From Streptomyces humicola (GTDB lineage Bacteria; Actinomycetota; Actinomycetes; Streptomycetales; Streptomycetaceae), in NCBI RefSeq assembly GCF_024436035.1, contig NZ_JANFNG010000012.1, forward strand, positions 62,001 through 126,000: a stretch of DNA of 64,000 bases, read 5' to 3'. Below the pieces are notes generated by a model that saw nothing but the letters and a program-made list of their open reading frames with translations, did not search any database and was not told the origin of the DNA. The position numbers and the translations under genes are program-made. Of the stretch, positions 1,960 through 64,000 are shown piece after piece (positions within the stretch are counted from its first letter, which is position 1; every line of letters begins with the position of its first letter).

Positions 1960-3554
1960 TGACCGTCCGCATCCTCTCCGCGGCCGCCGACCCCGATACC
2001 GCCCGGACGCTGACCGGCCTGCTCGGCCAACTGCCCGCCACCGACCCCGGCGAGGTACTGCCGGACACCACCGCCCTGCTCGACGCCCTCGCCCGAGCGG
2101 GTGAGAACGGCCTCGACCAGCTGCCCGAAGTCGTCCTCGTCCATGAGCGCGTCACGCCGATGCCCGCACTCGACCTGGTACGGCAGATCGCCCTGCGCTT
2201 CCCGGCCGTCGGCGTCGTGCTGATGACCTCCGACCCGAGCCCGGCGCTCTACGCGGCGGCGATGGAGTCCGGCGCACGCTCGGTGGTCGGGCTGCCGCTG
2301 GCGTACGACGAGTTGGCGGCGCGCGTCGACGCCGCGGCGGCCTGGTCGGTCGGCGTACGACGGCACCTCAGCCCCGGGCGCGAGCTGCCGGGCGGCGCGG
2401 GCGCGCGCCCCGGCGGGACGCTGATCGCCGTCGCCGGTGCCAAGGGCGGCACGGGCACCACCGTCAGCGCCGTCCAACTGGCGCTCGCCGCGCACGCCGC
2501 AGGACGCAGCACGGCACTGGTCGACATGGACTTGCAGGCCGGTGACGTCGCCTCCTACCTCGACGTCCAGTTCCGCCGCTCCATCGCCGATCTCGCCGAC
2601 ATCGGCGAGATCACCGGCCGGGTGCTCCAGGACGCCATGTACGTCCACCCGTCCGGCCTCGCGCTGCTGCTGGCGCCCGCGGACGGCGAGCGCGGCGAGG
2701 ACGTCACCGACCGCTCGGCGCGCCAGCTGCTGCATGCGCTGCGCGGGCGCTTCGACGTCGTCGTGGTGGACTGCGGCACGCAGATGACCAACGCCAACGC
2801 CGTCGCCGTCGAGACCGCGGAGACGGCGGTGCTCGTCACCACCCCGGACGTGGTCGCGGTGCGCGCCGCCAAGCGGATGGTACGGCTGTGGGACCGGTTG
2901 CAGATCCGCAAGCCGGAGGACGTCATCGTCACCGTCAACCGGCACACCCGCGCGAGCGAGATACAGCCGTCCTTGATCATGCGGATCACCGGGACGCGGG
3001 TGGCCAGGACCGTGGTCCCCGCCGCCTTCAAGGAACTGCAGGGCGTCATCGACGCGGGACGCCTCCAGGACCTGGACAACCGCTCCGGCGTCAAACAGGC
3101 GTTGTGGGCGCTCGCCGCCGAGCTCGGCATCACCGGCACCGCGGACGTCCCGGCCACGCCGCCCGCGCAGGCCCGGCGCAGGCGCCGTGAACTGGCCAAG
3201 GGCGACCAGGGACAGGTGGCCCTCGAATTCCTCGGCATGACACCGGTCATCCTCGTCGTGCTGGTCCTCATCTGGCAGGCGGTGCTCGCCGGTTACACCT
3301 TCACCCTTGCGGGCAACGCCGCGGACGAGGCGGCTCGCGCGGCCGCCGTCGGCAACGACGCCCGGGCCGCGGCGCTGGCCGACCTGCCGGGCGCATGGCG
3401 CGGTGACGCGCAGGTGGACCCGGTGGCGACCGGCGGCGGCCTGGTCTCCGTCACCGTCGGCCTGAAGGTCCCGGTGCTCTTCCCCGGGGCGGTCGACTTC
3501 CCGCTGACCGTCCACGGCCACGCAGCCGCGGCGGACGAACAGGACACGCGATGA
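1956..3554 (+). CDS. CpaE-like P-loop ATPase fused to a TadE pseudopilin
   Basis: A 532-residue protein. The open frame extends far upstream to 360, but the real start is the ATG at 1956 (GGGAGGCC before it), overlapping the cpaB stop. Residues 1-130 resemble a response-regulator-like CpaE domain. Residues about 150-400 form a MinD/ParA-type ATPase with a deviant Walker A (GAKGGTGTT, around residue 163) and a VDMDLQAGD motif. From about residue 415 the frame continues without a stop into a TadE segment (GDQGQVALEF, then a membrane helix). CpaE proteins position Tad pili and TadE is a minor pseudopilin. The gene overlaps the next tadE by four bases (ATGA). Confidence 0.9.
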   Translation: MMTVRILSAAADPDTARTLTGLLGQLPATDPGEVLPDTTALLDALARAGENGLDQLPEVVLVHERVTPMPALDLVRQIALRFPAVGVVLMTSDPSPALYAAAMESGARSVVGLPLAYDELAARVDAAAAWSVGVRRHLSPGRELPGGAGARPGGTLIAVAGAKGGTGTTVSAVQLALAAHAAGRSTALVDMDLQAGDVASYLDVQFRRSIADLADIGEITGRVLQDAMYVHPSGLALLLAPADGERGEDVTDRSARQLLHALRGRFDVVVVDCGTQMTNANAVAVETAETAVLVTTPDVVAVRAAKRMVRLWDRLQIRKPEDVIVTVNRHTRASEIQPSLIMRITGTRVARTVVPAAFKELQGVIDAGRLQDLDNRSGVKQALWALAAELGITGTADVPATPPAQARRRRRELAKGDQGQVALEFLGMTPVILVVLVLIWQAVLAGYTFTLAGNAADEAARAAAVGNDARAAALADLPGAWRGDAQVDPVATGGGLVSVTVGLKVPVLFPGAVDFPLTVHGHAAAADEQDTR

Positions 3555-53611: not shown

Positions 53612-56578
53612 TCAGGGCACCTGGCTTGAGGTGTTGCTGGTCCACAGGGTGGAGCCGGTGACGGTGGGGCCGCCACCGCTGCCGTAGACGACGAGGTTGC
53701 CGTCGTCCTGGAGGGTGGCGTAGGCGCCGGAGTGTCCCCAGGTGTTGGTGGACCACAGTGCGCCGCCGGTGCTGGGGCCGCCACCGGGCTTGTAGACGAC
53801 GAGGTTGCCGTCGGTCTGCATGTAGGCGTACGCGCCGCCGTGGCCGTAGGTGCTGCTCGACCAGATCGGCTTGCCGTCGCTGTTGCGGTACATCACGAAG
53901 TTGCCGTCCAACTGCATGACCAGCCGGGTGTACTTGGCTTGCGTCCACCAGCCGGGCGTCAGCTTCTGGCCCGAGCCGATGGTCTGGGGGTGGTCGTAGA
54001 CGTTGGTGGCCCACAACGCGCCGCCGGTGCTCGGCCCGCCACCGCTGCCGTAGACGACGAGGTTGCCGTCGTCCTGGAGGGTGGCGTAGGCGCCGGAGTG
54101 TCCCCAGGTGTTGGTGGACCACAGTGCGCCGCCGGTGCTGGGGCCGCCACCGGGCTTGTAGACGACGAGGTTGCCGTCGGATTGCATGTAGGCGTAGGCG
54201 CCGCTGTGTCCGTTGGTGTTGGAGGCCCACACCGCCAGGCCGTTTCCGCTGCCGCCGGTCTTGAGGTAGCCGACCAGGTTGCCGTCCGTCTGCATGGTCA
54301 GCGTCATGCTGGCGCTGGACAGGCTGTGGCCCGGGATGAGGAACTGACCGGGCTGGATGGTGTTTCCGCTGGCCGACGGCGCAACGGGGTTCACGACCTT
54401 GACGTCGGCGGTGTTCACGTAGGCGAGGCGGTCGTCATACTGGATCGGATAGTAGGTGGTCGTGCCCGTGACCAGGGTGCGGTCACCGGGCGCGCTTCCG
54501 TCGATGTTCACCGAGTTGTAGAAGTCGGACGTCTCCGCTGGCTGGGCGAGGTAAAGCTGCCCGGCCGGGACGGTGTACTTCGACAGCGGGCTGACCGGCT
54601 GCGCAGTGATGGTGCTCGGGTAGGCGCTCGCCTCCGGGTAGGCGCGGCCGTAGACCGCAATCGAGGTGGCGCCGTCCTTGGGGGTGATCAGCGTCTGCGT
54701 GGTGTCGCTGACCGGCGTGGTGAACGTCCCGCCGGGATTGTCGAACCAGACTTCCTGGCCGCCATACCAGATCGCTGTCCAGTCACCTTGCTGCGCTGCG
54801 ACCACGAACTGCTGCCCGGCTTCGGCCTTGTCTCCCCAGTCCGGTCCAGCCGTGGTGCCCGACCCGCTGGAGTGCAGGTACGGATCCGAGATCAGCGGAT
54901 CGCTGCTGGACGGGCCGGTGCGCAGATAGACGAAGTTGGCCGGCTGAGCCGAGGTGCTGTCCACCGGGGGCTCGTTGGCGGTGGTGAACGGTGGTGCAAT
55001 CTGGATCAGTTCTCCGGCCTGCAGCGGGTCGCCGACCGGGTTGCTGTTGCTCGGTGCGCCGAGCAGCTGCATGTAGTGGTTCCAGTCCCAGAAGGGCCCT
55101 GGGTCCCAGTGCATGCCGGCCACGTAGGCGTCGAGCGGTCCGGGGACGTTGTCGTGGCCGATGATGTGTTCACGGTCGAGCGGGATGTTGTACTTCGCCG
55201 CCAACCACTTCACCAATGTGGCGGAGGACTCGTACTCGGACTCGGTGTACCATGTCGCGCCCTGGAGCGCGTAGCCCTCGTGCTCGACCCCGATCGCGTG
55301 CATGTTGATGTACTTGTTGCCCGCGTGCCAGGCGATGTCCTTGTTCGGCACCATCTGAGTGACCAGTCCGTCGGAGGACCGGATCACGTAGTTCGCGCTT
55401 GCATACGCGGTCGGGTCCTGGAACTGGTTGATCGTCGTGCTGTAGCTGGCCTCGGTGTCGTGGATGACGATGTACTTGATCGCGTCCCCGTCGGCCGGAC
55501 GGTTGGCGATGTCGTAGTTGCCGTAGTCGCTCAGGGACGAGCTGTCCTGCGCGTACGCGGCGGGAACGAAGTTGCACGCCAGACCTGACGGGCACTCTGG
55601 CGTCGGTGTTGGCGTGGGCGTAGGGCTCGGGCTCGCCGTGGGCGTCGGGCTGGCCGTGGCGGTTGGGGTCGGCGGGGGCGTGGGCGTGGGGCTGGCCGTG
55701 GCGGTTGGAGTCGCGGTGGGTGTGGGCGTCGGGCTCGCGGTCGCCGTCGCGGTTGCGGTGGCCGTGGTGGTGTAGCTCATCGGCGAGTAGCTCGCCGTCG
55801 TGGTCTGCGGCCGCAGGCTTGGCTGCGCGGGCAGCGTCACCGCCTGGCCGTCGGCGGTGAGCCGGCTGATGCCCTGCTGGATGTGTGCGTAGACGCGCTG
55901 TGCGAACTGCGCCGCACCTGCAGCGTCCGGGGACTGGCTGAACCGCTCGACGGCCGGATACCACTGGGCCGGATCCGTCGGAAGCCCGCCGGTCGCCTGC
56001 TGCTCGTACTGCGCCAGCAGCGCCGCGCCACCGCGCAAGCTCTGCTTCATGTCGCCGCGCAGCGCGCTCGCGGACTGGCCGGTCAGCTTCGCCGCAGCAT
56101 CAAGGGTGTGCAGCGCCGGGGTGTTGGTCTGCACCGCGCCTACATCCGCGAGCACCCGGGCGTCCGGGTGGAAGTGGCCCCGCCGGTCGTCCCCGCGCAT
56201 GTTCAGCTCGGTCATCCGGTCCGAAACCGACGGATGCTCCACCTGCGTCGGGTCGACTTGGGTCAGACCCATCACGTTGTAGTTGCCGGTCGCGCTCGGC
56301 TGCCCGTTGTGGGTGTCCCAGCGGGACTCCATGTACGCCACACCGAGTAGCACACTCTCCGGCACGTGGTACTCCTGCGCCGCCGCGCCGAACTCGTCCT
56401 GCAGCGCATACGGCTGCGGACCCCCGGACTGGCCAGCTTGCGCCATCGCCACGATCCCGGAAGCCGCTGCCACCGCCACCACGCCCGCGATCCCGACCGT
56501 GATCCGGAGATGAGATCTTCGGTGCTTACGCTCTCTTCGGGACAAAACGCCCCCTATCCCTCGGCCGATGATGTTCAT
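53612..56578 (-). CDS. SLT-amidase wall hydrolase with two bulb-lectin domains
   Basis: A 988-residue protein. The ATG at 56578 starts a basic N-terminus and one membrane helix (about 25-48). Residues about 60-260 form an SLT-like region (PESVLLGVAYMESRWD, GLTQVDPTQVEHP). A Pro/Thr/Ala-rich linker is at about 265-335. Amidase_2 (N-acetylmuramoyl-L-alanine amidase) spans about 360-520 with zinc ligands in IVIHDTE and HIIGHDNVPG. Two B_lectin domains end it (about 741-860, 864-988). It would cut peptidoglycan while bound to mannose-type glycan. It is downstream of the BMP-like gene on the same strand. Confidence 0.9.
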   Translation of the reverse strand: MNIIGRGIGGVLSRRERKHRRSHLRITVGIAGVVAVAAASGIVAMAQAGQSGGPQPYALQDEFGAAAQEYHVPESVLLGVAYMESRWDTHNGQPSATGNYNVMGLTQVDPTQVEHPSVSDRMTELNMRGDDRRGHFHPDARVLADVGAVQTNTPALHTLDAAAKLTGQSASALRGDMKQSLRGGAALLAQYEQQATGGLPTDPAQWYPAVERFSQSPDAAGAAQFAQRVYAHIQQGISRLTADGQAVTLPAQPSLRPQTTTASYSPMSYTTTATATATATASPTPTPTATPTATASPTPTPPPTPTATASPTPTASPSPTPTPTPTPECPSGLACNFVPAAYAQDSSSLSDYGNYDIANRPADGDAIKYIVIHDTEASYSTTINQFQDPTAYASANYVIRSSDGLVTQMVPNKDIAWHAGNKYINMHAIGVEHEGYALQGATWYTESEYESSATLVKWLAAKYNIPLDREHIIGHDNVPGPLDAYVAGMHWDPGPFWDWNHYMQLLGAPSNSNPVGDPLQAGELIQIAPPFTTANEPPVDSTSAQPANFVYLRTGPSSSDPLISDPYLHSSGSGTTAGPDWGDKAEAGQQFVVAAQQGDWTAIWYGGQEVWFDNPGGTFTTPVSDTTQTLITPKDGATSIAVYGRAYPEASAYPSTITAQPVSPLSKYTVPAGQLYLAQPAETSDFYNSVNIDGSAPGDRTLVTGTTTYYPIQYDDRLAYVNTADVKVVNPVAPSASGNTIQPGQFLIPGHSLSSASMTLTMQTDGNLVGYLKTGGSGNGLAVWASNTNGHSGAYAYMQSDGNLVVYKPGGGPSTGGALWSTNTWGHSGAYATLQDDGNLVVYGSGGGPSTGGALWATNVYDHPQTIGSGQKLTPGWWTQAKYTRLVMQLDGNFVMYRNSDGKPIWSSSTYGHGGAYAYMQTDGNLVVYKPGGGPSTGGALWSTNTWGHSGAYATLQDDGNLVVYGSGGGPTVTGSTLWTSNTSSQVP
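53670..54180. repeat. 145-base perfect direct repeat within the lectin domains
   Basis: Bases 53670-53814 recur identically at 54036-54180, an offset of 366 bases (122 codons, exactly one lectin domain). Identity falls sharply outside, so a recent duplication or gene conversion has copied part of one lectin domain to the other. Confidence 0.9.
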
Positions 56579-56822
56579 AATCACCCGGTGGGGGGCGGGC
56601 ACGGGAACGATAGCAGGCAGATCATAAGTCGAGTGGTGGAGGAGGGCGTTCGGCGTTGGCGTGCTGCTCCAGGCCGGCCCGGTGACCGGGGCTCGGCCCC
56701 ACTGCTCTGTGGGCCCCGCGAAGAGCGCCAACCTACGAGAGCCGTACACGGCCAGGCTGCCATAGCCCTGATGGACAGGCCATTCTTGGGGCGCTGCCGT
56801 CCGGGTTCCGCCCGCCTGATAC

Positions 56823-57905: not shown

Positions 57906-60900
57906 ATGAGTCGCCGGGCTGTTGGTGTGTCGTCTTGTGTGGTCAGGGGGTTGGCGTTCATCGCTTCCCTCGGCTGCGGTGTGCAGCGGCGTTGGCTGCG
58001 GTGGATGGCGACCGTCGTGAGCGGCGTGCTGCTCGTGACGCTGGCAACGCAGCCTGCGCAGGCGGTCATCGTCGAGCACGCCGTGGCGTCAGGCTCTGCG
58101 GTGCTTCCGCAGCAGCGGACCGGGTCGGCGGCGGGGTTGGCGCACCAGGTGAGGTCGGCAGCTCTGCGGGCGAGCCGGAGCGCGTCGAGCCCGAAGGCCA
58201 AGCCGGTCCCGGGAGCTTTGCCATCCTCGTCGACGCACCTGCCGCCATCGAAGGAACAAGGCTCCTTCACCCCCAAGGGCACGACTGTCGCCAAGCAGGT
58301 CACGCCTCCGGCGCAGGTGCGTGCCGCTTTGCTGAAGCAGGCTCAGCAGCACGCCGCGAGGGCGAATTCGACGGCGCCGCAGGGGGATCCGCACCTTCCG
58401 GGGCCGAAGGCCAGCGGCGTGGAGGTGGTCAAGGACCGCACCGCGAACACCTCGGTGTTCCAGAACCCGGACGGCACGTACACCGCCCGGGTCTACCCCC
58501 GTCCGGTGCACTACCGCACCGCGAACGGCACCTGGGCGGACATCGACAACACCCTGGTGAAGGGTTCGGATGGCAGGTGGGCCGAGCGGGCGGATTCGCC
58601 GTCGGCGAGCTTCGCTGGTAGCGGAAACGATCCTCTCCTGGTCTCCTACGGTCCGTCGGCGAATGAGCAGGTCGGCTACTCGCTGCAGGGCGCCGCTGCC
58701 GTGACGGGGCAGGCGTCGGGGAGCACGATCACCTACCCCGCGATCGCGACCGCTTCGGATCTGCAGTACGCGGTCACCTCGAGCGGGGTGAAGGAAACCC
58801 TGCTCCTGCACGACGCCTCGGCCCCGACGACCTGGGTGTTCCCTCTCCACCTAACCGGCTTGACCCCCTCACTCACTTCAGACGGCAGCGTGGTGTTCAA
58901 GGACGCCTCCGGCGCCGTGCGTGCGACGATTCCGCACGGTTACATGGAGGACTCCAACATCGGTCAGGTCTCTGGCGAGGGCGCGATGTCGACCGGGGTG
59001 GCCTACAGCCTGACCACAGTGAACGGTGCCCCGGCGCTGCGGGTGTCGCTGGATACGTCGTGGCTGCACGACAAGGCGCGCGTCTTCCCGGTCAAGGTGG
59101 ACCCGACTAACCTCAACGCCTCCTCCAGCACCTATGTGGAGACGCCCTACGACATCAACTTCTCCACTGACTCGACGCTGAAGGTCGGCTCCTACGACGG
59201 AGGCGCGCACAAGGCCAACAGTTATGTGCTGAACTGGTCGTTCGGGTCGACGTTCCAGAACGACTACATCGAGCAGGCATCGTTGTACCTGGACGATGTG
59301 TGGTCCGGGGGCTGCACGGCCGAGCCGGTCTACGTTTCGCCGATCACCAGCGGCTGGAACGTCAGCCAGATCGCCAACTATCCCGGGTTGTCGTACGGTT
59401 CGCCGATCGGGTCGGCGAGCTTCGAGGCCGGCGCCAGCTGCGGCGGCTCGTCCTGGCACAGCATCGACCTGGGCGATACCGACCAGGCCTCCGGGGTGAA
59501 GCTGCTGGAGGGTTGGGCCCATGGCACCTACAACGAGGGCTTGGCGCTGACCGCGAACAACTCGGTCGTGGCGGCGTGGAAGCAGTTCGCCTCCGTCAAC
59601 TCCTCCTACCCGCCGTACCTGTCGGTCACCTACAGCACCTACGGGGCCGACTACAACATCCCGAGCCAGAACTACACCGAGCCCACGGCCAACACCTACG
59701 GCTCGATGAACGTCAACGTCACCAATCGGGGCACGTCGGCGTGGACGTCGTCGAACATGACGCTGTCCGACGACGTGTACAGCAGCTCCTGGTCGTCAAT
59801 CAGCGCGATCTCGCCGCGCGTTTCGGTCCCGTCCACGGTTAACCCGAACTCCAGTGTGTCGATGACTGGGTCGATCGGCCCGATCACCCCCGGCCAGTAC
59901 TACGTGTGCTGGGACATGTATCTGAACGGGAACACCTCGTTCTACTTCACCTACCACGTCACGTATGCGTGCTATGAGATCAACTCGGCAAACGCACCGC
60001 CACAGATCGACTCCACCTCGCCACCCTCGAACGTAGCGCTCGGCAGCCTCACACCGGAGCTCTTCGCCTCCGGCCATGACCCGGACAACTACCCGGGCAA
60101 GGGCCTGACCTACGACTTCCGTATCTACACCAACCCCACCGCCGGCTCCCCGTCGCTGGTGGTCGACTCCGGCTCGATCAGCGCAACGCACTGGGTGGTG
60201 CCATCAGGCAAGCTGTCCTGGAACCAGTCGTACTACTGGCAGGTCTCCGACAACGACACGCTCTCTTCCAGTGCGTGGAGTGCCCCGTCGTACTTCACGA
60301 CGACCGTTCCCCAGCCGCTGATCACCTCACACCTCGGTGCGGCAGCACAAGGGCCGAACGGCAAGACCTTCGACCCAAGGGTCGGGAACTACACCACCTC
60401 CGCCACCGATGCGAACGTGTCCGTGGTCGGACCGGCGCTGTCAGTGGCGCGCTCCTACAATTCCCTCGATCCGCGCACCAGCAACCTGTTCGGCGCCGGA
60501 TGGTCGACGACGTACGACATGTCCGCAGCGCCCGATAACGACGGAACCGGCGCGGTCGTGGTCACCATGGCCAACGGCCAGCAGGAGCGGTACGGACTGA
60601 ACGCGGATGGAAGCACGTTCTCCCCTCCTCAGGGCACCTATGCCACCTTCCAGACGGTCAGCGGCGGTGGCTACACCCTCACGGACAAGTCGGGGACCAC
60701 GTACACCTTCGGCGAGCAGTCCGGTACGGTCTGGAAGCTGACGAAGATCACGGACGCGGACGGGCGGAGCGAGACTCTCACCTACAACTCCGACGGCACG
60801 CTGGCCACGGTCACCAACACCGGTAGCAACCGGTCGCTGCACTTCACCTGGGGCAGCGGTCACGTCACCCAGGTGGCGACCGACCCAGCCACCTCCGGTG

Positions 60901-63900
60901 GCGCGGCCGAGACCTGGACGTACTCCTACAGCGGCAACAACCTGACCGGGGTGTGTCCGCCCACCTCCTCCACGGCGTGCACCGCCTACTCCTACACCTC
61001 CGGCTCGTCCTCCGGCTCGCACTACCGCTCAGCTGTACTGGACGCCAACCCCTCTTCCTACTGGAGGCTGGGCGAGTCCTCCGGTACCACGGCAGCCAGC
61101 GAGGTCGCGGTCAACGAGGGCAACGACGACGGCACCTACACCGGCGGTGTGACTCTCGGCGCGGCCGGGCCGCTGCCCGGCTCGCCGACCACCGCGGCCA
61201 CGTTCAACGGCTCCAGCGGTTACGTGTCCCTGCCGAACAGCCTGCTGACGTCTGCGACCTATACCTCGGTCGGGATGTGGTTCAAGACCAGTGGCTCCGG
61301 TGTGCTGTTCTCCTACCAGAAGGACGCGCTGACCAACAGCTCCACCCCCGGTAACTACACCCCGGCCCTGTACGTCGGCACCTCCGGCAAGCTGTACGGC
61401 GAGCTGTGGGAGAACAGCGTCTCCCCGATTGCCACCTCCGGTTCGGTGGCGGACGGCAAGTGGCACTACGTCGTCCTTTCGGCCGCTGGGAACACGCAGT
61501 CGCTCTACCTGGACGGCGCCCTGGTCGGCACCCTGTCGGGGCAGGTGCAGGTGACGGGGCAGCCGGTGGACGCCATCGGCACCGGTTTCCTCGGCGGTGG
61601 CTGGCCGGACGAGCCCCACTACAACACCTCCAGCAACACCGGATACCCCACGTACTTCAACGGCACCATCGCCGAGGCCGCCTTCTACACCCACACCCTC
61701 GGGCTGCCGGCGGTCCAGCAGCAGTACACGGCCGGCACCACCCCGGCCACCGAGCTGACCGGCATTACCCTGCCTTCGGGCAAGACGCAGATGGCCGCCA
61801 CCTACGACGCGGTGCGCGACCGGGCCACCCAGATCACCGACAACAACGGCGGCACGTGGAAGCTGTCGGATCCGACCACCACGGGGTCGGGCGCCTACTA
61901 CCGGGATGCGGTCATCTCCCAGGCGGCCCCGAACTACTGGCGCTTCCAGGACACCTCCGGAACCCAGGCCGCCAACGAGGTCGCCGGCACCACGGCCTCC
62001 AACTGGTGGTCCTCCGGTCCCGCGACCTACAACAACGTCACCCTCGGTGCTCCGGGCCTGTTCACCGGCAGCCCGGAGACCGCCGCCTCGTTCAACGGCA
62101 CCAGCTCATACGTGTCGCTGCCGTCCACCACGATCTACAGCGGCCAGCTCTCGGCGAACTTCTCCGTCGAGCTGTGGTTCAAGACCTCCACAGCCGGTGA
62201 GACGCTATTCAGCTACCAGTCCACCGCGATCGGCACCACACCCTCGGGGAGCTACACCCCGGCCCTGTACGTCGGCTCCGACGGCCACCTGTACGGGCAG
62301 TGGTGGGATGACCTCCTCTCACCCATGAAGTCACCTGGCACGGTCAACGACGGCAACTGGCACCAGGTCGTGCTCACCGTAAACACCGACGGCGAGCAGA
62401 CGCTGAATCTGGACGGCAAACAGGCCGACACCCGCACCGGGCAGCAGCTGGACTTCACCGGCCAGTCCTACGTCTCCATCGGCGCCGGCTATTTGTCCGG
62501 GGCCTGGCCCGCACTGCCGTCGAACAACCCGCAGGGCTACTTCAACGGCGAGATAGCCGAGGTCTCCACCTTCAACCAGGCCCTCAACTCCACCACGGTG
62601 GCGGCGCAGTACGCCGCCCGCGGCACCTCCAACGGCGCCACCCCGGTCACTGCCGTTACCGTGACCGACCCGACGGGCAAGACGCTCACTTACCGGTATG
62701 ACCCGGACAACGACTCCCGGCTGATATCGGTCACCAACGCGCTCGGCTACACCACCTCCTACAGCTACGACACCGGCGGCTTCCAGAACACCGTCACCGA
62801 CCCGGACGGCAACTACACCGCCACCACCTACAACGCGCGCGGGGACGTGCTGTCGCGCACCACGAGCGACATGCACGGCGACACCACCACCAGCTACTGG
62901 AACTACCCGGCGTCCGGCACCTACAGCGTGACCGACCCGCGCAACGACGAGCCCACCTCCTACGCCGACCCGCGCTCGGCCAGCTCCACCGATACCACCT
63001 ACGCCACCACCTACACCTACTCCTCGACCGGAGACCCGCTCACCACGACCAACCCGGACGGGGATGTCACCACCAAGACCTACACGGCGGGAACCGAGTC
63101 CGCGATCGGCGGCGGCACCGAACCGCCAGGTCTGACGGCTTCCGCCAAGGACGCAAACGGCAATACCACCACCTACGCGTACGACAGCTCAGGCGACCTT
63201 GCCCAGGTGACCTCGCCCTCAGGGCTGAAGACCACCTACACCTTTGACAATCTCGGCCGCCGCCTCACCCAGACACAAGTCTCGGACACCTACCCGAACG
63301 GCGTCACCACGAGCTACACCTACGACGCCCAGGACCGCATGGTCACCCAGACGGGACCGGCCACCACGGACGCCGTCACCGGCACCACCCACACCCCGCA
63401 GACCACCTACACCTACGACGCCGACGGCAACACCACCTCCAAGGCCGTCGCCGACACCACCGGCAAGGACGCCACCCGCACCACGAGCTGGACGTACAAC
63501 GCCTACAACCAGGAGGCCTCGGTCACCGACCCCGCGGGCCGCGAGACCACCTACGGCTACGACGCCTACGGCAACCGCACCTCGGAGACCGACCCGAACG
63601 GCAACGCCTATACCTACGCCTACTCGCCGACCGGTGAGCTGCTCACCACGACGCTGACCAACTACACCGGCGACCCGGAAAACCCTTCCTCGCCCACCTC
63701 CTTGGTGGTGGACTCCAAGGCGTACGACCCGGCTGGCTGGGTGGCCTCTGACACCGACTCGATGGGGCGGACCACCGACTACTACTACAACTGGAACCAC
63801 CAGCTCATTCAGAGCTTCCTGGCCAACTTCCACAATCCGGGCGGCTCCACCACCAAGGTCCTCGAGCAGGACGGCTACGACGCGGCCGGTCACCTGATCG

Positions 63901-64000
63901 AGCAGCAGAAGACCGCCGCGCTGATCGAAACCGACTACACCGTCGACCCGGCCGGCCGCACCACGAAGGCCACTTTCGACCCCTACGGCCTGGACAAGAC
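57906..64000 (+). CDS. Giant secreted DNRLRE-LamG-Rhs/YD-repeat protein, N-terminal part
   Basis: An uninterrupted frame of over 2,030 codons that runs off the right edge. The ATG at 57906 follows GGGGGT. A long basic leader with a membrane segment (MATVVSGVLLVTLATQPAQA, residues about 43-62) directs export. Then come a DNRLRE-type beta domain (about 395-580), fibronectin-like regions, the start of the Rhs core at about 800 (SVARSYNSLDPRTSNLFGAGW), two LamG/concanavalin-like domains inserted in it (about 1046-1280 and 1332-1580), and YD repeats (TYTYDADGN, YGYDAYGNRT, and others). Rhs cores form a shell enclosing a variable C-terminal toxin; that part is outside the window. Confidence 0.92.
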   Translation, partial: MSRRAVGVSSCVVRGLAFIASLGCGVQRRWLRWMATVVSGVLLVTLATQPAQAVIVEHAVASGSAVLPQQRTGSAAGLAHQVRSAALRASRSASSPKAKPVPGALPSSSTHLPPSKEQGSFTPKGTTVAKQVTPPAQVRAALLKQAQQHAARANSTAPQGDPHLPGPKASGVEVVKDRTANTSVFQNPDGTYTARVYPRPVHYRTANGTWADIDNTLVKGSDGRWAERADSPSASFAGSGNDPLLVSYGPSANEQVGYSLQGAAAVTGQASGSTITYPAIATASDLQYAVTSSGVKETLLLHDASAPTTWVFPLHLTGLTPSLTSDGSVVFKDASGAVRATIPHGYMEDSNIGQVSGEGAMSTGVAYSLTTVNGAPALRVSLDTSWLHDKARVFPVKVDPTNLNASSSTYVETPYDINFSTDSTLKVGSYDGGAHKANSYVLNWSFGSTFQNDYIEQASLYLDDVWSGGCTAEPVYVSPITSGWNVSQIANYPGLSYGSPIGSASFEAGASCGGSSWHSIDLGDTDQASGVKLLEGWAHGTYNEGLALTANNSVVAAWKQFASVNSSYPPYLSVTYSTYGADYNIPSQNYTEPTANTYGSMNVNVTNRGTSAWTSSNMTLSDDVYSSSWSSISAISPRVSVPSTVNPNSSVSMTGSIGPITPGQYYVCWDMYLNGNTSFYFTYHVTYACYEINSANAPPQIDSTSPPSNVALGSLTPELFASGHDPDNYPGKGLTYDFRIYTNPTAGSPSLVVDSGSISATHWVVPSGKLSWNQSYYWQVSDNDTLSSSAWSAPSYFTTTVPQPLITSHLGAAAQGPNGKTFDPRVGNYTTSATDANVSVVGPALSVARSYNSLDPRTSNLFGAGWSTTYDMSAAPDNDGTGAVVVTMANGQQERYGLNADGSTFSPPQGTYATFQTVSGGGYTLTDKSGTTYTFGEQSGTVWKLTKITDADGRSETLTYNSDGTLATVTNTGSNRSLHFTWGSGHVTQVATDPATSGGAAETWTYSYSGNNLTGVCPPTSSTACTAYSYTSGSSSGSHYRSAVLDANPSSYWRLGESSGTTAASEVAVNEGNDDGTYTGGVTLGAAGPLPGSPTTAATFNGSSGYVSLPNSLLTSATYTSVGMWFKTSGSGVLFSYQKDALTNSSTPGNYTPALYVGTSGKLYGELWENSVSPIATSGSVADGKWHYVVLSAAGNTQSLYLDGALVGTLSGQVQVTGQPVDAIGTGFLGGGWPDEPHYNTSSNTGYPTYFNGTIAEAAFYTHTLGLPAVQQQYTAGTTPATELTGITLPSGKTQMAATYDAVRDRATQITDNNGGTWKLSDPTTTGSGAYYRDAVISQAAPNYWRFQDTSGTQAANEVAGTTASNWWSSGPATYNNVTLGAPGLFTGSPETAASFNGTSSYVSLPSTTIYSGQLSANFSVELWFKTSTAGETLFSYQSTAIGTTPSGSYTPALYVGSDGHLYGQWWDDLLSPMKSPGTVNDGNWHQVVLTVNTDGEQTLNLDGKQADTRTGQQLDFTGQSYVSIGAGYLSGAWPALPSNNPQGYFNGEIAEVSTFNQALNSTTVAAQYAARGTSNGATPVTAVTVTDPTGKTLTYRYDPDNDSRLISVTNALGYTTSYSYDTGGFQNTVTDPDGNYTATTYNARGDVLSRTTSDMHGDTTTSYWNYPASGTYSVTDPRNDEPTSYADPRSASSTDTTYATTYTYSSTGDPLTTTNPDGDVTTKTYTAGTESAIGGGTEPPGLTASAKDANGNTTTYAYDSSGDLAQVTSPSGLKTTYTFDNLGRRLTQTQVSDTYPNGVTTSYTYDAQDRMVTQTGPATTDAVTGTTHTPQTTYTYDADGNTTSKAVADTTGKDATRTTSWTYNAYNQEASVTDPAGRETTYGYDAYGNRTSETDPNGNAYTYAYSPTGELLTTTLTNYTGDPENPSSPTSLVVDSKAYDPAGWVASDTDSMGRTTDYYYNWNHQLIQSFLANFHNPGGSTTKVLEQDGYDAAGHLIEQQKTAALIETDYTVDPAGRTTKATFDPYGLDK

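What the first reader, a model, noticed from the sequence alone, without database searches (positions are those of the whole stretch)
57906..64000. Giant Rhs protein with two LamG domains inside the YD shell
The frame is open for over 2,030 codons. DNRLRE and two LamG/concanavalin-like domains accompany the Rhs core, the latter inserted between YD segments at about residues 1046-1580. The toxin tip and any immunity gene lie right of the window. Glycan-binding LamG domains inside the core may steer delivery.
Basis: partly seen in the sequence, partly recalled or inferred. Interest (0 to 1): 0.65.

Follow-up and report, generated by a model that had tools for sequence, protein, structure and literature searches.

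The report
Secreted bacterial toxin with lectin-like inserts
A soil actinomycete carries a giant secreted toxin-delivery protein whose hollow shell has two sugar-binding-type domains set at fixed places, and across relatives these domains appear to be swapped as whole cassettes, as the toxin tips are, which suggests two separately changing parts, one perhaps for aiming and one for killing.

Summary
The ORF (57906 to window-equivalent 68252) encodes 3448 residues: signal peptide, CBM96/DNRLRE-like domain, two FN3-like domains, DUF6531, YD shell with two LamG domains (residues 1039-1280 and 1331-1575), Rhs-associated core, PT-HINT pretoxin domain and HNH nuclease tip. A DUF4265 gene, the likely immunity gene, starts 22 nt after the stop. 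It is a Sec-type, WapA-like Rhs polymorphic toxin.

The LamG placement is a conserved subfamily trait: in about 100 relatives (Streptomyces, Kitasatospora, Amycolatopsis, Kutzneria, Actinoplanes and others) the LamG1-LamG2 spacer is nearly always 50-52 residues, and many carry a third LamG at a second site. Eighty tips match 13 Pfam families, 11 of them nuclease, deaminase or toxin families. Within near-identical shells the LamG bodies look replaced: shell 93%, LamG1 93%, LamG2 body 49% in one pair; this protein's LamG1 body is 45% identical to S. murinus against 78-84% in the shell. Tips and LamG types reassort.

So this is a new variant of a known kind. Its strongest novel reading is an Rhs toxin with two independently exchanged modules. 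That the LamGs bind target glycans is inferred.

The parts
57906..64000 (+). Rhs polymorphic-toxin gene, 5' 2031 codons; continues to window-equivalent 68252 (L009:907-11253, 3448 aa)
57906..58064 (+). Sec-type signal peptide (residues 1-53, RRWLRW...QPAQA/V)
   Evidence: hydrophobic stretch plus AxA; same feature in 77 of 99 relatives; cleavage site inferred
59133..59636 (+). CBM96/DNRLRE-like carbohydrate-binding-module fold (residues 410-577)
   Evidence: model m67a4c9b1b7f7 vs 8wab Z 17.7 and 7vbo Z 15.2; DNRLRE hit at the same place in relatives; no direct HMM hit on this protein
59637..60314 (+). Two FN3-like domains (residues 578-803)
   Evidence: structure matches Z about 10
60375..60593 (+). 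DUF6531, start of the Rhs core (residues 824-896)
   Evidence: PF20148 E 1.2e-10
60594..61019 (+). First YD segment of the shell, ending in the conserved Cys pair C1017/C1025
   Evidence: alignment; Cys positions; model aligned to Rhs structures
61020..61745 (+). LamG1, concanavalin-like domain (residues 1039-1280)
   Evidence: PF13385/PF02210; family HMM envelope; matches AbnA domain 4 5hon Z 21.6
61746..61895 (+). 50-residue YD spacer between the LamGs (residues 1281-1330), length conserved in nearly all relatives
61896..62630 (+). LamG2, concanavalin-like domain (residues 1331-1575)
   Evidence: PF13385 best stretch 1397-1566
62631..64000 (+). YD-repeat shell, first part; continues beyond the window to residue 2930 (Rhs_assc_core 2851-2930), then PT-HINT 3203-3336 and HNH 3410-3443; the DUF4265 gene follows at window-equivalent 68275-68754

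Best explanation
This is a secreted, WapA-like Rhs polymorphic toxin of an actinomycete. Sec exports it. The N-terminal CBM96-like and FN3-like domains hold or present it on the producer's surface. The YD shell encloses the C-terminal segment, and the Rhs core protease and the PT-HINT domain cut the tip free. The HNH tip degrades nucleic acid in the target cell, and the downstream DUF4265 protein protects the producer. Two LamG domains looped out of the early shell at fixed places bind surface glycans and set which cells are hit; they are exchanged as cassettes between relatives, separately from the tips. Shown by sequence: domain order, fixed LamG spacing, tip polymorphism, LamG divergence inside near-identical shells. 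Predicted by model: fold and continuity of the shell. Inferred: surface anchoring, glycan binding, target choice, cleavage, nuclease activity, immunity function.
For: Full domain order. The model (pLDDT 86, pTM 0.75) aligns with Rhs shells across both LamGs (8qja Z 27.8 over 470 residues spanning model 1-1046; 7q97 557 residues over 1-1147), so the LamGs are insertions in an otherwise ordinary shell. The LamG1-LamG2 gap is 50-52 in nearly all of about 100 relatives. Tips: 80 non-redundant tips match 13 Pfam families, 11 of them nuclease, deaminase or toxin families; 75 of 80 have an ORF directly downstream; this protein is 66-84% identical to its four closest relatives in the shell but 11-25% in the tip. 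LamG exchange: 268 pairs with shell identity 75-97% show bimodal LamG2 identity; for shell 85-97%, 15 pairs lie at 45-60%, 43 at 70-100% and none between. Edges are sharp at DNA level, and the same tip occurs with different LamG2 types. DUF4265 also follows HNH-type tips in L139, L141 and L171. The pretoxin HINT region matches chain 8w20 (E 2.1e-25), and lectins set species targeting in Streptomyces umbrella toxins (PMC13274773).
Against: No binding, cleavage or killing data. LamG folds also bind proteins or are structural. Only 4 DUF4265 genes were seen behind HNH-type tips; most DUF4265 genes in relatives stand elsewhere. The LamG2-type switches on the shell tree are not forced by strongly supported branches. 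The tip half could not be folded here.
Confidence: 0.62

Rival explanations
1. Same toxin, but the LamG pair binds the producer's own wall or sheath glycans and anchors the protein, as proposed for laminin-G in polymorphic toxins by Zhang et al. 2012; cassette differences follow the producer's own glycans.
For: PMC3482391 section 42 proposes anchoring for laminin-G; surface glycoconjugates of Streptomyces vary between species (PMC13274773).
Against: The protein already has an N-terminal CBM96-like domain that could do this; the LamGs lie in the shell, not at the N-terminus. The reassortment of tips and LamG types fits targeting but does not exclude anchoring.
Confidence: 0.22
2. The LamGs are structural: they brace or gate the shell and bind nothing outside; differences between relatives reflect relaxed constraint.
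For: Fixed spacing and position.
Against: LamG2 identity is bimodal with a gap rather than a smooth decline, and the drop is confined to the LamG body with conserved edges; copy number at the first site varies from 2 to 4.
Confidence: 0.1
3. An ordinary surface adhesin or wall protein with no toxic role, its C-terminus being a remnant.
For: No activity shown; many adhesion-type domains.
Against: PT-HINT and HNH domains at the end, an adjacent small gene, and strong tip polymorphism in relatives.
Confidence: 0.06

Closest known systems
WapA of Bacillus subtilis (Sec-secreted Rhs toxin of Gram-positives, PMC5566331)
   Same: Signal peptide, carbohydrate-binding-type N-terminal region, YD repeats, Rhs-associated core, variable C-terminal nuclease with an immunity gene (WapA layout from general knowledge).
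   Different: WapA has, to my knowledge, no LamG inside the YD region and no PT-HINT; here there are two LamGs in the shell plus HINT and an HNH tip.
T6SS Rhs effectors with solved shells (8qja, 7q97, 7pq5, 8h8a)
   Same: Same shell fold in the modelled part (Z 22-28) and Rhs repeats.
   Different: LamGs are not part of the aligned shell; T6SS Rhs proteins carry PAAR/VgrG-linked parts, none of which was hit here.
Streptomyces umbrella toxins (PMC11062931, PMC13274773)
   Same: Antibacterial polymorphic toxins that use lectins; the pretoxin plus HINT region here matches chain 8w20 (E 2.1e-25), which I take from memory to be an umbrella-toxin chain.
   Different: Umbrella lectins are separate proteins in a particle; here the LamGs are built into one Rhs chain.
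Polymorphic toxins with adhesion domains surveyed by Zhang et al. 2012 (PMC3482391)
   Same: Laminin-G listed among associated domains; RicinB, discoidin and bulb lectin noted among RHS repeats.
   Different: Laminin-G was described as usually N-terminal with an anchoring role; fixed LamG sites in the shell and cassette exchange are not in the section read.

Membership tests
Rhs/YD-repeat polymorphic toxins | Many YD/RHS repeats with DUF6531 and Rhs-associated core | tested here: met
   29 RHS_repeat stretches, DUF6531, TIGR03696 54 bits vs cut-off 32.5; shell fold
Rhs/YD-repeat polymorphic toxins | Variable C-terminal toxin domain behind a conserved core | tested here: met
   Core similar, tip dissimilar; 13 Pfam families among 80 tips, 11 of them nuclease, deaminase or toxin families
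Rhs/YD-repeat polymorphic toxins | Immunity gene directly downstream | tested here: inconclusive
   DUF4265 gene 22 nt downstream, also behind HNH-type tips in L139, L141, L171; function untested
Rhs/YD-repeat polymorphic toxins | Autocleavage and toxicity | not testable with these tools
   Motif and domain matches only
WapA-type secreted Rhs of Gram-positives | Sec signal peptide and DNRLRE/CBM-type N-terminal domain, no T6SS parts | tested here: met
   signal, by hydrophobicity only; CBM96-like, by relatives and fold; no PAAR or VgrG domain
LamG / concanavalin-like domains | Profile and fold match | tested here: met
   PF13385 86.5 bits vs 27.6; 5hon Z 21.6
Streptomyces umbrella toxins | ALF-repeat stalk with separate lectin subunits | not tested
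   Only the HINT region matches 8w20; the chain here is YD-repeat
Teneurin-like proteins | TTR, FN-plug and related superfold parts N-terminal to the YD shell | tested here: inconclusive
   Foldseek lists teneurins below Rhs effectors for the core; the specific N-terminal parts were not examined

The most novel reading that the evidence does not exclude
A widespread actinomycete class of Rhs toxins with two independently exchanged modules: LamG glycan-recognition cassettes at fixed sites inside the shell, and nuclease or other toxin tips at the end, so that target choice and killing activity diversify separately within one polypeptide.
Probability: 0.45. Interest if true: 0.68.

Novelty: new variant of a known kind. 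Interest (0 to 1): 0.5.

Why it matters
How secreted Rhs toxins of Gram-positive bacteria choose their targets is, as far as I know, unsettled. Fixed, swappable lectin-type domains in the shell give a concrete candidate for the recognition part. If binding is shown, single-chain Rhs toxins would share the logic described for Streptomyces umbrella particles, where lectins set species targeting and toxin domains vary separately.

Tried and rejected
Direct DNRLRE match: NCBIfam gave none on this protein; replaced by evidence from relatives and fold. Alignment A1 was too divergent to scan genome contigs; a six-row alignment worked. The Foldseek list for the N-terminal model was dominated by FN3/Ig-type chains; VIA-align brought out the CBM96-type matches. 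A simple regex for the core motif missed most relatives, so it was not used for counts. Relaxed constraint as the cause of LamG divergence: disfavoured by bimodal identity and sharp DNA edges. DUF4265 as a dedicated immunity family: only partly supported, since most DUF4265 genes in relatives are not behind a recognisable toxin gene. Literature searches for LamG within Rhs found only the 2012 survey text.

Full report
Observation. The frame from ATG 57906 is open to the window end (2031 codons). The window is G000:C3:62001-126000, and the contig continues; the gene ends at window-equivalent 68252, giving 3448 residues. Pfam finds 29 RHS repeats, DUF6531, two LamG stretches, PT-HINT (3203-3336) and HNH (3410-3443); NCBIfam finds the Rhs-associated core (2851-2930). 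A gene of 159 codons with DUF4265 (E 3.7e-20) starts 22 nt after the stop.

N-terminal half. A signal-peptide-like segment is present here and in 77 of 99 relatives. Residues 160-840 were modelled with 36 rows (pLDDT 87.9). The stretch about 410-577 matches a chondroitin-sulfate-binding CBM (8wab, Z 17.7) and the alginate-binding CBM96 structure (7vbo, Z 15.2); residues about 578-803 look like two FN3 domains. The CBM96 founder shows about 30% identity to DNRLRE domains (PMC9971899). DNRLRE itself is hit in 22 of 36 rows but not in this protein.

Shell and LamGs. Residues 815-1985 were modelled with 63 rows (pLDDT 86.3, pTM 0.75). VIA-align places known Rhs shells across the model from residue 1 to beyond 1046 (8qja Z 27.8, 470 aligned; 7q97 557 aligned), which can only be so if most of the LamG residues are skipped, and LamG1 matches domain 4 of the arabinanase AbnA (5hon, Z 21.6). 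The LamGs are therefore insertions in a continuous shell. That they point outward is inferred from their size and from the second insertion site falling in what reads as a hairpin turn (residue about 2071).

Conservation. The LamG-in-shell layout occurs in many relatives and in 80 named loci kept of 204 found. The gap between LamG1 and LamG2 is 50-52 residues in nearly all, with 57-60 in a few. Some carry LamG3 and LamG4 directly after LamG2, and many carry another LamG type at the second site. On a LamG tree the second-site domains form one group (support 100), and LamG1 and LamG2 mostly group by position across families, so the pair is old (quick tree, careful one unfinished).

Tips. Of 80 non-redundant C-termini, 17 match a DNA/RNA non-specific endonuclease family, and others match DddA-like and XOO_2897 deaminases, NucA/NucB, colicin DNase, WHH and Ntox families; 13 Pfam families are matched in all, 11 of them nuclease, deaminase or toxin families. 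In 75 of 80, an ORF of at least 60 codons begins within 130 nt (not compared with chance). This protein and its four closest relatives are 66-84% identical in the shell and 11-25% in the tip. DUF4265 follows HNH-type tips in L139 and L141 and L171, which supports but does not prove immunity.

LamG exchange. Pairwise identities in the 63-row alignment show pairs such as L090 and L104 with shell 93%, LamG1 93% and LamG2 55%. In that pair the LamG2 body (177 aligned codons) is 49% identical in protein and 66% in DNA, against 92-94% in DNA for the shell before LamG1 and after LamG2 and for LamG1, and 87% for the short spacer and LamG2 edge. For this window and S. murinus (L078), the LamG1 body is 45% identical against 84% in the shell before it and 78% after. 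Across 268 pairs with shell identity 75-97%, LamG2 identity is bimodal; for 85-97% there are 15 pairs at 45-60%, 43 at 70-100% and none between. Pairs share sequences, so these counts are not independent. LamG2 type D appears in three places on the shell tree, though strongly supported branches do not force this. Of 46 tips, 7 clusters have more than one member, and 6 of the 7 span different LamG2 types. The simplest reading is replacement of LamG bodies by recombination, separate from tip replacement.

What it is. A Sec-secreted, WapA-like Rhs polymorphic toxin with built-in lectin-type modules. The pretoxin region also matches chain 8w20 (E 2.1e-25), from memory an umbrella-toxin chain. In umbrella toxins separate lectins give species-specific binding to surface glycans (PMC13274773). 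Zhang et al. 2012 noted laminin-G in polymorphic toxins, usually N-terminal and read as anchoring, and other lectins among RHS repeats. Within the texts I could read, fixed LamG sites in the shell and their exchange were not described; most subscription papers were out of reach.

What is not shown. Glycan binding, target choice, shell cleavage, nuclease activity and immunity were not tested. The similarity to AbnA is of fold only. The tip half could not be folded with the tools at hand.

Noticed in passing
window 53612-56749 (-): Large protein with an N-acetylmuramoyl-L-alanine amidase domain and a D-mannose-binding B_lectin domain, upstream of the Rhs gene.
   Followed up: no
L009:13760-16294 (-) and L009:16036-17322 (+): A CHAT-domain protein facing a CATRA-N/CATRA-C (caspase and TPR associated) protein, downstream of the Rhs locus; possibly a conflict-related pair.
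   Followed up: no
G000 contigs C4, C16, C20, C27: Four further contigs of the same genome carry RHS repeats in long open frames, none with LamG found in the same frame.
   Followed up: no
L064, L085, L100, L118, L133, L134, L140, L154 (second LamG site, our residue about 2071): A separate LamG subtype inserted about 500 residues or more after LamG2, absent in the window's protein; one group on a quick tree.
   Followed up: partly
L061, L063, L066, L067, L069, L083, L086, L089: Tandem LamG3 and LamG4 directly behind LamG2, with short linkers.
   Followed up: partly
L147: A relative whose LamG-bearing reading frame appears split, with a stretch read as N; likely a gap in the assembly.
   Followed up: no
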